Shown here piece after piece: positions 24,914 to 29,693 of a stretch of DNA of 64,000 nt. A model generated the notes under the pieces. The model was not told where the DNA came from and made no database searches. It was given only the letters and a program-made list of their open reading frames with translations. Position 1 is the first letter of the stretch; the number at the start of each line of letters is the position of its first letter. Made by a program: the position numbers and the translations under genes. Origin of the DNA: Stieleria varia (GTDB lineage Bacteria > Planctomycetota > Planctomycetia > Pirellulales > Pirellulaceae); the NCBI RefSeq assembly GCF_038443385.1, contig NZ_CP151726.1, forward strand, positions 1,984,001 to 2,048,000, read 5' to 3'.

Positions 24914-27277
24914 CTATCGCTTTTCTGGCTGCTGGATGACTCCGGGCAACGGCATGTTGCCCTCGATAGCGACGATGCAAAGGTGGTTGTCAATGCTGCC
25001 GGCCCAGATTCGACCCGATGGGTATGCTGTGACTGAGGCGAGGGGACGCGGGAACCAAGCGGCGACGGTCTTGCCGTCCATCGTTTCAATCAGTGAATCG
25101 TCCGTGCGGCCTATCCAACGCCACGGGTGTTCGTGCCGTTTTATCGCTAACGCACTCAGATCGGTTGTCCCGGATATCGACTCAACGCATGATCCACGAT
25201 TGAGATCCCAGATCATGATCTCTGGCTCATGCTGGGAGGCAGATAGCAGGAAACGACCATCCGGCGTGAACGCGAGTTGCGATATCTGTTGTCGATGGCC
25301 GCGAAACTCATTCAACAGTCGTCCATCATTGGCATCCCATAGCGATACGGTCATGCTGGCACCACCGGAGGCAACACGTTTTCCGTCTCCTGAGATCGCA
25401 ACACAGGTGACTCCGAGCCAACCTTCTGATTCACATACGATGCAAAGTCGTTCCCTGTTTTTCTGCAGGTCCCAAACTCGAACGGTCTGATCCGCTGCAC
25501 ACGAGACCAACGTTTGACTCTCTGTATCGAAAGCGAGTTGATTGACCCAGTCCTTGTGCCCGTCGAGTCTCGTTCGGAGAACTTTCGTCGGCCAATCCCA
25601 GATCAAAATCGCCCCTTCTCGTGAACCACATGCGAGGCAGTTTCCGTCGGGTGCGAACAGCGGCCGATCCAAACGGTCAGTCGGGAGATCGCTACTCATC
25701 ATCGTGGGTGTGACCGCATCCACGTCGAAGGCAGACAGGAGGCCAGCCTCGTCCACGACCACGACCGATTGTCCGTCAGGCGAAAAACTGGCAAAGCGTG
25801 CGTCGTGGGGCGTCGAAGAAAGATCACGCAGTTTTTTTCCGTCCGTACCGTCGCAAAGTCGCGGCACGGGGTCAAATCGTCCAACGGTAACCAGTCTGCG
25901 ACCGTCTGGTGAAAGCTCCACTCCATCCAGGTAAGTGCCGTGGTCGTACGTCATTTCCCTTGGATCGGCATCGGATTGCATATCCCGGATTGCGATGCAA
26001 TGACCAGACGTGCAGGCGATTGTCAGTCCGTCGGGGGCGATCGCGACGGCTCCACCTTGCAGGTCTTCGGTCGAAATGGATCGCACAAGAGAGCCGTCTT
26101 GAAGACTGAACACGCAAAGGGAACCGTCGTCTTCCATCACAGCTAGCAAGAGCCCATCAGGCGAGAACGACAGTCCGCGGACGCCTGAATGTAGCTTCTG
26201 TGAATACTGGATCTTCTTTGTCTGGACATTCCAAACCGTGAACGTGCCGTCGTCCAATCCCCATGCTGCTCTGTCAAAGCTTGACGCCACCTCCAGAACG
26301 TTGATTCGACCTTGACCCGAGGGTCGAATGGCCTCACATGAGTCATTTTTCCAGTCGTAGAAGACAATGGACCCATCGAAGCATCCTGCCAACACTTTTT
26401 CCGCAGTTCCGACAAATCGGACCGCAGTCACCATGTCAGAGCATGTCGTTTTTGCAACGACGTCCCCTGTGGCTGGGTCCCATATACAAACATGGTTCTC
26501 ATTTCCTCCGGTAACCAGGCGTTGCCCGCACGGCGACCACGCAACATCGTTTAAGATCTCACCGGCACCAAAACAAGAATGCTCTGTCCCTGACTCTGAG
26601 TCCCAGATCCTCAACGACCGATGGCTTGCTGTCGCGATAAAACGGTCATCGCGACTCCACGCGACGGCGTGAACATCAAGGCCAGGAACTCGGTAGCCGA
26701 CGCCACCGTGAACGATGTCCACAAACTCCTGGGGCGATAACTTCGCTAACTCATCCGATGTGAATGTCTTGATCAGGCTTTGAAGCAGAACGCCGCTTTT
26801 CAAGTCCCATACTTTAACGCTGCCATCGCTTGCCCCTGAGGCCAAGCGACATCCGTCCGAAGAAAAGTCGATCGAATTGACTGAACCCGTATGGCCTCGG
26901 AAGACTGCGATCAGACCTGAGTCGATTGGATTTGCCGGTGGGCGCAGGGATCTGAGCCAGATGAACCCAGGTGTGCGGTGCTGCTTACCTGATCGCCATG
27001 TTTCCAAGACTTGAAAAAGCTTTGTCTTTCGAGTGTCCGGTGTTTCAGATTCATCCGACCCTCGATTCACTGATTGCATGGAGCTTGCGGCGACATCGCC
27101 ATCGTGCCACCAGCACTGATTCCACATCGTTTGAAAGAGCGTTGTCGGATGTTGCTCAAGGAAATGCGATTCTCGTCGGATTGCCTTCTGCAACAAACCC
27201 AACGTTTTCGCGTCCGGACGCTCTTTCGGAAAGGCGGCAATCGCTTCCGAAAAATCTCTTAGAAGCTCGAAGATCAT
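24914..27277 (-). CDS. WD40 double beta-propeller protein; likely C-terminal half of a STAND NTPase
   Basis: 787 residues. After a helical region (about 1-110) come roughly fourteen WD40 repeats, enough for two seven-bladed propellers; clear ones include FRGHTGSVNSIDFSSDG..VKVWD, LDGHKDWVNQLAFD..VRVWDL and FRGHRQQISQLAFTPDG..IMIWDL. The ATG at 27277 has no ribosome site. The first residues (MIFELLRDFSEAI) look like the linker that in NACHT-WD40 proteins directly follows the end of the NTPase part. The frame is +1 relative to the upstream NACHT gene, whose stop is 16 bases away, and is open back through that stop. It probably acts as the ligand-sensing half of one complex or fused protein. Confidence 0.85.
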   Translation of the reverse strand: MIFELLRDFSEAIAAFPKERPDAKTLGLLQKAIRRESHFLEQHPTTLFQTMWNQCWWHDGDVAASSMQSVNRGSDESETPDTRKTKLFQVLETWRSGKQHRTPGFIWLRSLRPPANPIDSGLIAVFRGHTGSVNSIDFSSDGCRLASGASDGSVKVWDLKSGVLLQSLIKTFTSDELAKLSPQEFVDIVHGGVGYRVPGLDVHAVAWSRDDRFIATASHRSLRIWDSESGTEHSCFGAGEILNDVAWSPCGQRLVTGGNENHVCIWDPATGDVVAKTTCSDMVTAVRFVGTAEKVLAGCFDGSIVFYDWKNDSCEAIRPSGQGRINVLEVASSFDRAAWGLDDGTFTVWNVQTKKIQYSQKLHSGVRGLSFSPDGLLLAVMEDDGSLCVFSLQDGSLVRSISTEDLQGGAVAIAPDGLTIACTSGHCIAIRDMQSDADPREMTYDHGTYLDGVELSPDGRRLVTVGRFDPVPRLCDGTDGKKLRDLSSTPHDARFASFSPDGQSVVVVDEAGLLSAFDVDAVTPTMMSSDLPTDRLDRPLFAPDGNCLACGSREGAILIWDWPTKVLRTRLDGHKDWVNQLAFDTESQTLVSCAADQTVRVWDLQKNRERLCIVCESEGWLGVTCVAISGDGKRVASGGASMTVSLWDANDGRLLNEFRGHRQQISQLAFTPDGRFLLSASQHEPEIMIWDLNRGSCVESISGTTDLSALAIKRHEHPWRWIGRTDDSLIETMDGKTVAAWFPRPLASVTAYPSGRIWAGSIDNHLCIVAIEGNMPLPGVIQQPEKR

Positions 27278-27293
27278 TGGAATGCTGTTCGCA

Positions 27294-29693
27294 TTAGGGT
27301 TTCGCCTCGGCTTTGGCTTCGAGGAACTCCCAGTTCAGCAGCAGATCGGCGACCGCCTTCCATTCCAACGCGGTTGGGTCATCTTTGCCAGTTAGCTTTG
27401 CGACTTCGAGTGTGTGATAGGGCAGTTCGTCCACTTTACGAATGTTGACCGGACGTGGCGTCGGGGGAAAAGCTCTCGAACGTTCACGCTGAGCGTCGAT
27501 ATCTTCCAGAAAATAGGGATGACGTGTGTCATCACCGAAATACTTGGCGAGTTTCTGATGCAGATAGAGACGCTCGCCATCGTCCAGGTATCTTCTGCGA
27601 ACTGCATCTTCCACCTGTCGGTGATAAAAGCTCAATACCGTTGTTCCAAAAGCATTTCGATCAGTGAGATAGGATTCCAAGTCACCGTGCAGGCGTGACC
27701 AAATCAAGACCGGTAATCTTGATTGACGCTGACCCGACTCTCGCTCGGTAGGGGATCGCAGCGCAAAGTCCTGCATGACATCTTCGTCGGTCGATAGCAC
27801 ATCGATCAACTCATCCTCCGTCAATCCTCGCCGGCCAGCGGCGATGTATCCGAGCGCACGGCGTGTCAGCACTTCTCCATGCGCCCGGTTGTCTTCCAAT
27901 CGCGAGAAAAGGTCGCATAGAATTCCAGGAACACCAGGTGATAGTCCTGGGGAACCATCGTGTCCCGTTGGCAATGCATCGTACGATTTCCAATGTCGTG
28001 ACTCCTCGAACGCCAGCTTCAGCCAGAGGGGCAGCCCGCACTGCTGGGACTCAAAGCCATCCAGAATGCTCTCTTGCTGTTTGGTCGTGAGGCGACGCCC
28101 CACATCGGCGTGCCAGCGATTCAATAGTTCTTTGCCCTGAATCCGACTCATTCGACCAAGCTGAATGTGGTTGCGTGTCGGAATCCGACTCGTCGCTCTC
28201 TCGTAGATTGCTCGAGATTCGATTGTCACCATCGAATCATCCGAGTCGAGCATGGACAGAACGAGCCTGCAGTTGCCAGGTAACGAGTTCCACGGTATCC
28301 AGGCCAACTGATGTGCACCATCAACTTCGTTGAGCTGATCCAACGCATCCAACAGGATCACGAGTGTCTTGTTTGCAGACGCGATGGCAAGCGTCTCGTG
28401 AAAGTAACGCACCACCTCGTTCATTTCCGATAGGGATGGGCTTTCGTCTTGCAATTGGAATCGAAAGCGAATTTCATCGGTTAGACTGATCAACATCGAA
28501 CGCAGGTCCGATGCTGACGGCGTCACACCCAAAAAGCGAACGATGGTTACCGTATTGGAATGCTCCGGTGAGTCAAGCTCTGCGGCAGTGTTCGCCATCA
28601 ACGCGGTTTTTCCCGACCCGCCAGGACCGGATATCAGCAGCGGTTGGTCATGAGAGCCTTGTCGCAAATACTCTGAAATGCGTTCTCGTTCCTCCACTCT
28701 CCCTGTAAAGTGGCGACATCGCTGATCCCCGAACATCGCGTGAAGAGTCGCTTCGGAATCCATTGATTCAGCGATGACATCTCGCTCATCAAGGGCGTCC
28801 TGGATGATTGACGATAAATCCAGGAAAACGCCTTCTGTGAATGAACGCAGCCAAGCCTCGTCATTCGGACTGGACACATCGTACGATCGAAAGCGGGCGC
28901 CCAAGCGGTCTCGTAGTTCAGACTTCAAATTGCAAAGTCGTTGGTCAGCCTTGATATCCCAAGTGCCATCGTCATCAACGAGGTCGCAATACTCGTGATA
29001 CTCTTGATCGATCACTTTGTCTCTTGACTGGGATCGCTGTCTCGCAAAGTAGTTCAGATTCCGTGAATAACAGACGACATGTTCGCTGGCTTGGACGCTT
29101 GCCAACGCGCCGTTTCGAATTTCTTGATGAGTCGCTGAGTCAAAATACTTCGATCGTCTCGGGTCATCCTCCGCGAACGCTCGCAAAGCTGCTTGTTGCA
29201 AAATGAAACGTAGTTGAGCTTCGTCAAAACTCGCGTCACGAGGTTGCAGAACCCGCTCGGGCTCAATGGCATTCAGATCCAAACGATAGAATCGCTGCAG
29301 TTGACTCAGTTCCGACTCGGGTGATGAATCTTGAGATCGCTCGACGGCATCACATAGCTGCTGAAACTCGATCTCGGGAATCTCTGACGGCAGCGGACGC
29401 CATCCGTACCGGTCGCCCAGCAGCATAAGGAAATTCGGACGAGGCGTTGTCGATTGGCACCGTCGCAACTCATCCAAACAAATTCGCATCGTTTGATGAT
29501 TCTCAGTCGCCTCCTCGCTGATTCCCCAGCGAAGGTCAATCGCTTGAAATCGTGCGTCGCGACTTTCGCAGAATTCACGCAATCGAGGGAAAACGAGTTG
29601 ATTCAGCAGTTCGCGTTCTATCCGAAAGTCTCGGAACGACGAACTGACAAAGACACGAAATAGTGGACGCGATTCTCCAAACCAGGCGTTCAT
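27294..29693 (-). CDS. DUF4062-NACHT (STAND) NTPase, NWD1/TEP1-like
   Basis: 799 residues. The N-terminus (LFRVFVSSSFRDFRIERELL, 11-30) is the DUF4062 domain, followed by a nucleotide-hydrolase-like helical region with RWGISEEA and LLGDRYGWRP. The NACHT/STAND ATPase has Walker A GPGGSGKT (356-363), a segment RFLGVTPSASDLRSML (386-400) typical of NPHP3/TEP1-like proteins, and Walker B LVILLDALDQL (444-454). A winged-helix/helical part follows to the end. STAND proteins are ATP-switched scaffolds; bacterial members include Avs-type antiphage sensors, but no effector domain with known toxicity is seen here. It ends with codon CCC before TAA, with the WD40 gene in the +1 frame. It follows the deacetylase by nine bases. 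Confidence 0.88.
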   Translation of the reverse strand: MNAWFGESRPLFRVFVSSSFRDFRIERELLNQLVFPRLREFCESRDARFQAIDLRWGISEEATENHQTMRICLDELRRCQSTTPRPNFLMLLGDRYGWRPLPSEIPEIEFQQLCDAVERSQDSSPESELSQLQRFYRLDLNAIEPERVLQPRDASFDEAQLRFILQQAALRAFAEDDPRRSKYFDSATHQEIRNGALASVQASEHVVCYSRNLNYFARQRSQSRDKVIDQEYHEYCDLVDDDGTWDIKADQRLCNLKSELRDRLGARFRSYDVSSPNDEAWLRSFTEGVFLDLSSIIQDALDERDVIAESMDSEATLHAMFGDQRCRHFTGRVEERERISEYLRQGSHDQPLLISGPGGSGKTALMANTAAELDSPEHSNTVTIVRFLGVTPSASDLRSMLISLTDEIRFRFQLQDESPSLSEMNEVVRYFHETLAIASANKTLVILLDALDQLNEVDGAHQLAWIPWNSLPGNCRLVLSMLDSDDSMVTIESRAIYERATSRIPTRNHIQLGRMSRIQGKELLNRWHADVGRRLTTKQQESILDGFESQQCGLPLWLKLAFEESRHWKSYDALPTGHDGSPGLSPGVPGILCDLFSRLEDNRAHGEVLTRRALGYIAAGRRGLTEDELIDVLSTDEDVMQDFALRSPTERESGQRQSRLPVLIWSRLHGDLESYLTDRNAFGTTVLSFYHRQVEDAVRRRYLDDGERLYLHQKLAKYFGDDTRHPYFLEDIDAQRERSRAFPPTPRPVNIRKVDELPYHTLEVAKLTGKDDPTALEWKAVADLLLNWEFLEAKAEAKP

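What the first reader, a model, noticed from the sequence alone, without database searches (positions are those of the whole stretch)
27280..27330. NACHT and WD40 halves joined by a possible +1 frameshift at CCC-TAA
On the minus strand the DUF4062-NACHT gene ends GAG-GCG-AAA-CCC-TAA. If one C is skipped (tRNA-Pro moving from CCC to CCT), reading continues as PNANSIPMIFELLRDF straight into the WD40 gene, with no stop before its ATG. The WD40 gene has no ribosome site. TEP1/NWD1-type proteins combine DUF4062, NACHT and WD40 in one chain, and the junction residues (NWEFLEAKAEA | MIFELLRDF) read as one continuous linker. CCC before a stop is a known kind of +1 slippery codon. Alternatives: two genes with coupling, a recent one-base insertion, or a sequencing error.
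Basis: partly seen in the sequence, partly recalled or inferred. Interest (0 to 1): 0.75.

Follow-up and report, generated by a model that had tools for sequence, protein, structure and literature searches.

The report
Split bacterial NACHT-WD40 receptor, two genes
What looked like one protein joined by a ribosomal frameshift is best read as two neighbouring genes, an NADase-like switch and its WD40 sensor, a pair that some relatives encode as two overlapping genes and others as one protein.

Summary
The sequence facts hold: on the minus strand the DUF4062-NACHT ORF (27294-29693) ends AAA-CCC-TAA and the +1 frame runs open into the WD40 ORF (24914-27277). The halves do belong to one TEP1/NWD1/APAF1-like receptor. 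The +1 frameshift is not supported. Six other loci are split at this hinge; in 6 of 6 the NACHT stop TGA overlaps the WD40 start (ATGA or GTGA), the classic 4-nt overlap, in a phase other than +1. None keeps CCC-stop. Split WD40 genes start RTG-ATC (12 of 12, window included); fused ones read NTG-G in 7 of 8. The window is split-type, but its NACHT stop lies 16 nt before the WD40 start. A mini-ORF bridges the gap, starting inside the stop (TAATG) and ending on the TGA that overlaps the WD40 start. Most likely these are two subunits, an NADase switch and a WD40 sensor, the sensor made by reinitiation. A one-base assembly error and low-level slippage remain open. The split form, sometimes with two or three chained WD40 genes, is a modest novelty.

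The parts
27294..29693 (-). ORF1, 799 aa: DUF4062 (Pfam stretch aa 13-101), NACHT (351-530), NWD1-like winged helix (596-706), then arm helices ending FLEAKAEA-KP
24914..27277 (-). WD40 gene, 787 aa: N-terminal cap (aa 1-~110), the part that follows the hinge in fused relatives, then WD40 repeats
27294..27299 (-). CCC-TAA, end of ORF1 (proposed slip site)
27274..27294 (-). mini-ORF ATG CGA ACA GCA TTC CAA TGA; its start overlaps the ORF1 stop (TAATG), its stop overlaps the WD40 start (ATGA)
   Evidence: sequence; role inferred
27274..27277 (-). ATGA at the WD40 start: same RTG-ATC start as in the split relatives

Best explanation
This is a split STAND (NLR-like) receptor made of two proteins. 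Subunit 1 is a DUF4062-NACHT switch: a TIR-like NADase head on a NACHT ATPase, ending in the first half of an APAF1-like helical arm. Subunit 2 is a WD40 sensor whose N-terminal cap is the second half of that arm. The inferred working cycle is that the sensor docks on the arm and holds the NACHT off, a ligand on the WD40 part releases it, the NACHT oligomerises, and the DUF4062 heads destroy NAD+. In split relatives the two genes overlap by 4 nt, so terminating ribosomes can restart on the sensor and the subunits are made together. In this window the non-conserved NACHT tail is out of phase by a net one base and stops 16 nt early. The sensor is then most likely translated by reinitiation, probably through the TAATG...ATGA mini-ORF. 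Shown: domains, homology, hinge position, the 4-nt overlaps in relatives, the RTG-ATC start. Inferred: docking, NADase activity here, an antiphage role, reinitiation and use of the mini-ORF.
For: Junction census, same-contig duplicates counted once: 6 of 6 split loci with an adjacent cap, other than the window, overlap by 4 nt (L061, L062, L064, L075, L136, L134; L134 holds only the last 50 aa of the NACHT frame, at a contig edge). Set aside: L076 (split, only a weak cap-like frame about 100 nt on, seen by eye) and L065 (broken). Tandem WD40-WD40 junctions overlap by 4 nt in 4 of 5. Split caps start RTG-ATC in 12 of 12, window and tandem copies included; fused caps read NTG-G in 7 of 8 (L071 reads TTG-CTG), none RTG-ATC; L061_up and the L065 remnant are in neither class. 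Between EAKAEA and the place of the WD40 start codon, fused rows have one codon in 8 of 9 rows printed (L073 has two), split relatives 5, 5, 5, 47, 47 and 62 nt, and the window 25 nt. Nearest rows by tree path are L065 (broken), L061 and L075 (both split). A model of fused L084 puts the hinge in a loop (280-282) between two confident helices; full-length Apaf-1 is the best PDB match. ORF1 alone models well to the end of FLEAKAEA (pTM 0.83). The DUF4062 matches the TEP1 TIR structure 11gz at E 6.5e-13, and E191, R95 and R21 correspond by motif to TEP1 E1008, R976 and R908. PMC10666635 (abstract and passages): 4-nt overlaps are the commonest spacing and are enriched for subunits of complexes.
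Against: The window lacks the direct 4-nt overlap. PMC10666635 reports a 40-80% drop of reinitiation at +14 nt in E. coli pairs and near loss at about 20 nt, so coupling may be weak unless the mini-ORF is used, which is untested. The tail K-P-N in the +1 frame resembles L075 D-P-N and L065 Q-P-H, a slight hint that the +1 frame was once coding. A Pro codon also stands before the stop in 4 of 6 split relatives (CCG or CCA, not CCC). The trees are poorly resolved: 7 of 21 inner branches starred and 2 of 19, where the window's cap sits beside four fused rows at 89/66. There are no expression, interaction or activity data.
Confidence: 0.74

Rival explanations
1. Assembly or sequencing error: the true sequence has the usual 4-nt overlap and the early stop is an artefact.
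For: The junction is only a net one base out of phase with the overlap seen in 6 of 6 comparable relatives, and the ATGATC start is intact.
Against: The C run is only three long, the genome is one contig at 99.99% completeness, both ORFs are otherwise intact, and tail length varies in relatives. Reads were not available.
Confidence: 0.12
2. Programmed or incidental +1 frameshift at AAA-CCC-TAA joins the halves into one chain of about 1,590 aa.
For: (AAA)CCC_UGA is the shift site in three Listeria phages, and E. coli pheL CCC_UGA shifts at 15% (1.9% in Salmonella) (PMC5009743 passages). The +1 frame is open. Fused relatives exist.
Against: CCC-stop is in 0 of 7 other unfused loci with a visible NACHT stop, the split relatives are in another phase, the stop is TAA, CCC is common, the linker would be seven residues longer than in 8 of 9 fused rows, and the WD40 start is split-type.
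Confidence: 0.07
3. A decaying locus: loss of the overlap is an early step of pseudogenisation.
For: The locus is patchy: in the genus only the window's own genome of 14 matches, and in the family 7 of 241, distant paralogues included. Relative L065 has a broken NACHT frame and a WD40 cap remnant.
Against: Both ORFs are full length; the P-loop Lys, the LLDALD Asp and the DUF4062 residues are in place.
Confidence: 0.07

Closest known systems
TEP1 / NWD1 / NWD2 (eukaryotic DUF4062-NACHT proteins, several with WD40)
   Same: DUF4062 next to NACHT, NWD1-type winged helix, WD40 repeats; key DUF4062 residues
   Different: One chain there; here two genes cut in a loop of the arm
Swarozyc (KpSwz), DUF4062 antiphage NADase (PMC13174449)
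   Same: DUF4062 TIR-like domain
   Different: KpSwz has an auxiliary sensing domain; the parts I read give it no NACHT or WD40 partner; activity here is untested
APAF-1
   Same: STAND ATPase, helical arm and WD40 arrangement; best PDB match of the fused model
   Different: CARD head instead of DUF4062; one chain
Listeria phage tsh +1 frameshift sites
   Same: (AAA)CCC followed by a stop (PMC5009743)
   Different: UGA stop and found in three phages; here TAA and not found in relatives
Gene pairs coupled by termination-reinitiation
   Same: The split relatives have the 4-nt overlap
   Different: The window's direct spacing is +16 nt

Membership tests
DUF4062-NACHT-WD40 (TEP1/NWD1-like) receptors | DUF4062, NACHT, winged helix and WD40 domains | tested here: met
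   Pfam DUF4062, NACHT, HTH_NWD1 and WD40 all above cut-off across the two ORFs
DUF4062-NACHT-WD40 (TEP1/NWD1-like) receptors | all in one polypeptide | tested here: not met
   two ORFs here; six related split loci with a 4-nt overlap; a shifted fusion product was not testable
DUF4062 NADases | catalytic Glu and active-site Arg residues as in TEP1 | tested here: met
   S-x-T-x-x-E motif in 14 of 14 proteins of A3 (E191 here), R95 column 14 of 14; R21 is present here but that column is Arg in only 4 of 14; the E191 column is Glu in 12 of 14, since MAFFT misaligns the motif of L062, L064 and L136. TEP1 numbering placed by inference
DUF4062 NADases | NAD+ hydrolysis | not testable with these tools
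   needs biochemistry
Programmed +1 frameshift genes | slip site conserved in relatives | tested here: not met
   CCC-stop in 0 of 7 other unfused loci with a visible NACHT stop
Programmed +1 frameshift genes | shifted product made | not testable with these tools
   needs reporter or proteomics
Termination-reinitiation coupled pairs | stop and start overlap by 1 or 4 nt, or lie within a few nt | tested here: inconclusive
   met in 6 of 6 comparable relatives; the window is +16 directly, -1 then -4 by way of the mini-ORF

The most novel reading that the evidence does not exclude
A plug-in NLR: one DUF4062-NACHT NADase engine carries half an arm, and one or several WD40 sensor genes, chained by 4-nt overlaps, each carry the other half, so different sensors can drive the same engine. 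The hinge has switched between fused and split more than once. In this window, where only one sensor cap is found in the whole genome, a mini-ORF relay (TAATG, six codons, ATGA) keeps the two subunits coupled after the overlap was lost.
Probability: 0.3. Interest if true: 0.65.

Novelty: new variant of a known kind. Interest (0 to 1): 0.42.

Why it matters
If right, some bacteria run TEP1/APAF1-like receptors as separate engine and sensor subunits, possibly with interchangeable sensors. That gives a simple system to test how WD40 domains hold a NACHT switch off, and how gene fusion and fission occur at a structural hinge.

Tried and rejected
Programmed frameshift: I looked for CCC-stop in the other unfused loci; 0 of 7 with a visible NACHT stop have it.

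One origin of the split: rejected by the AU test on the NACHT tree (p 1.07e-114 with 7 split rows, 2.73e-79 without L076). The group was defined by its junction, not by the tree, but long branches could bias the test, and shuffled labels were as clustered as the split label in 79 of 500.

Spread of the split by swapping sensor genes: the cap tree is too poorly resolved to decide (2 of 19 inner branches starred).

A NACHT gene directly upstream of the extra WD40 frame in G692 (L061_up): no recognisable one among the frames of 150 aa or more printed from L143 (looked at by eye, not searched with a profile), so it is not counted as a pair.

Viral contigs: 60 pattern matches, none confirmed as relatives. 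Plasmids: 1 record, 14% of the query, the DUF4062 part. PADLOC: nothing for P0001; for the WD40 protein one match, HEAT-ARM_XIII at 8.5e-24, best stretch 63 residues of a 1972-position model, taken as WD40 cross-match.

Selection on the junction could not be measured: no close strain with the locus was found among the 13 other genomes of the genus.

Full report
Observation. ORF1 (27294-29693, minus, 799 aa) ends GAG GCG AAA CCC TAA, and the WD40 ORF (24914-27277, minus, 787 aa) lies in the +1 frame with no stop between. The WD40 frame is open 19 codons upstream of its ATG. This alone is weak evidence: seven stop-free codons are likelier than not by chance (my arithmetic), CCC makes up 52 of 181 proline codons in five genes of the window, and one CCC last codon among 45 long open frames is about what that frequency predicts.

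What the parts are. ORF1 carries DUF4062, a NACHT/STAND NTPase and an NWD1-type winged helix; the second ORF carries WD40 repeats. The DUF4062 part matches the crystal structure of the TEP1 TIR domain, 11gz, at E 6.5e-13. PMC13174449 (outline and abstract, sections 5, 8, 11 and 20, and passages) reports DUF4062 as a TIR-like NADase, with E1008 needed and R908 and R976 contributing in TEP1. I placed these on the window by assuming that the 220-residue chain ends at residue 1113; the three arginines named in the paper then all fall on arginines of the chain, and E1008 falls on the last Glu of S-V-T-E-M-E. That motif, S-x-T-x-x-E, is SATHQEI (E191) here and is present in 14 of 14 aligned proteins. 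The R95 column is Arg in 14 of 14; the R21 column in only 4 of 14.

Relatives. All tallies include the window's own genome, and matches at E 0.001 include distant paralogues. With ORF1: 4 of 60 close genomes, 10 of 396 in the order, 21 of 392 in the phylum. With a profile of the C-terminal part (A1, six rows): 15 of 397 in the class, 1 of 14 in the genus, 7 of 241 in the family.

Fused relatives. L063, L078, L084, L139, L137 and L138 read from (F/S)LEAK(A/V)E(A/G) through one residue and L or M straight into the cap, in one frame. L140 and L071 also hold NACHT, C-terminal part and cap in one frame, and L135, L066 and L067 are single long frames across the hinge, without a cap match at E 1e-3. 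I checked WD40 repeats by Pfam only in L084. L070, in the window's own genome, is a single 1677-aa frame with DUF4062 and NACHT.

Split relatives. Six distinct loci have two genes: L061, L062, L064, L075, L136 and L134. In 6 of 6 the NACHT stop TGA overlaps the WD40 start as ATGA or GTGA. Two further unfused loci do not fit. L076 ends FLEAKAEAGG* with no cap match at E 1e-3, though by eye a cap-like frame lies about 100 nt on. L065 is broken and keeps a cap remnant downstream. CCC-stop is in 0 of the 7 unfused loci with a visible NACHT stop; a Pro codon does precede the stop in 4 of the 6 overlapping pairs (CCG or CCA, then TGA), where a +1 slip would not reach the WD40 frame. In L062 three WD40 genes follow one NACHT gene, each joined by a 4-nt overlap. 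Over all loci 4 of 5 WD40-WD40 junctions overlap by 4 nt; the fifth, in L064, has an 11-nt gap. Some second copies are short frames (186 aa in L061, 205 aa in L136), so they may be broken.

Which type the window is. Its WD40 gene starts ATG-ATC. Split caps start RTG-ATC in 12 of 12 rows, window and tandem copies included; fused caps read NTG-G in 7 of 8, the exception being L071 (TTG-CTG), and none reads RTG-ATC. In neither class I put L061_up (ATG-ATA, long frame, no NACHT seen upstream) and the L065 remnant (GTG-ATT). From EAKAEA to the place of the WD40 start codon there is one codon in 8 of 9 fused rows printed (two in L073), 5, 5, 5, 47, 47 and 62 nt in the six split relatives, and 25 nt in the window. 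So the window looks like a split-type junction whose tail is a net one base out of phase with the usual overlap.

Structure. A model of fused relative L084 (600 residues, 11 sequences, mean pLDDT 82.2, pTM 0.58) puts the hinge in a short loop between helices 271-279 and 283-296. Its best PDB match is full-length Apaf-1 (TM-score 0.40 by query, so fold-level support only; most other top matches are WD40 propellers alone). ORF1 alone gives mean pLDDT 84.5 and pTM 0.83, ending in the helix 788-797. Its own PDB search put ORC-type ATPases first and Apaf-1 ninth. The cut thus lies in a loop of the arm, and the two subunits could pack as the fused protein does. That is inference; no complex was modelled.

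Evolution. On a NACHT tree of 24 rows split and fused forms are interleaved; starred branches force at least two changes, and one split clade is rejected. Only 7 of 21 inner branches are starred. The window's nearest rows by path are L065 (broken), L061 and L075 (both split). The cap tree is poorly resolved (2 of 19 starred) and places the window beside four fused rows at 89/66, which counts mildly against a simple history.

How the sensor is made here. PMC10666635 (abstract and passages) reports that 4-nt overlaps are by far the commonest spacing, that +14 nt lowers reinitiation in E. coli pairs by 40-80%, that about 20 nt nearly abolishes it, and that overlaps are enriched for subunits of complexes. 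In the window the direct gap is 16 nt. But the ORF1 stop overlaps an ATG (TAATG) with GAGG 10 nt before it, and the six-codon frame ends on the TGA that overlaps the WD40 ATG. A relay of two overlaps could keep coupling. Given the ATGATC start, such a mini-ORF would arise by chance in roughly 2% of cases (1/16 for TG after the TAA, 1/3 for the frame; my arithmetic). It is untested.

The frameshift claim. It cannot be excluded as a minor event. PMC5009743 (passages) gives (AAA)CCC_UGA as the shift site in three Listeria phages, and 15% shifting at E. coli pheL CCC_UGA (1.9% in Salmonella), which appears incidental. Here the stop is TAA, the site is not found in relatives, and the phase differs from that of the split relatives.

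Literature. I looked at listings for DUF4062 with NACHT and WD40 (20 of 142 papers listed), DUF4062 alone (9 of 9), split-NLR terms (15 of 4,752), sensor-subunit terms (3 of 3) and gene-fission terms (2 of 2); titles and abstract starts there do not describe a split DUF4062-NACHT plus WD40 gene pair. I read passages of PMC7159879 and PMC10907252, on related conflict systems; those passages do not describe it either. The library lacks most subscription papers, and no supplements were read, so it may be described elsewhere.

Verdict. A split receptor family of some interest, and an ordinary explanation for the junction.

Noticed in passing
L062:6452-12312 (G668): Three WD40 genes in a row after one DUF4062-NACHT gene, each joined by a 4-nt ATGA overlap and each with a very similar N-terminal cap; the third runs off the contig.
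   Followed up: partly
L065:8689-12650 (G034): The relative nearest to the window has its NACHT gene in broken frames and a WD40 cap remnant downstream; a stretch that looks membrane-spanning follows FLEAKAEA in frame.
   Followed up: partly
L064, L140 and L063 (all G381): One genome holds split and fused versions of this receptor family.
   Followed up: partly
window:29703-34822 (-): A polysaccharide deacetylase gene ends 9 nt before ORF1 and is preceded by DUF1552 and planctomycete cytochrome (DUF1592/DUF1588) genes, so the receptor may sit at the end of an operon of other function.
   Followed up: no
L070:6508-11541 (own genome): A single 1677-aa frame with DUF4062 and NACHT elsewhere in the same genome.
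   Followed up: partly
L061:1189-4833 (G692): A long frame with a matching cap but no recognisable NACHT gene directly upstream.
   Followed up: partly
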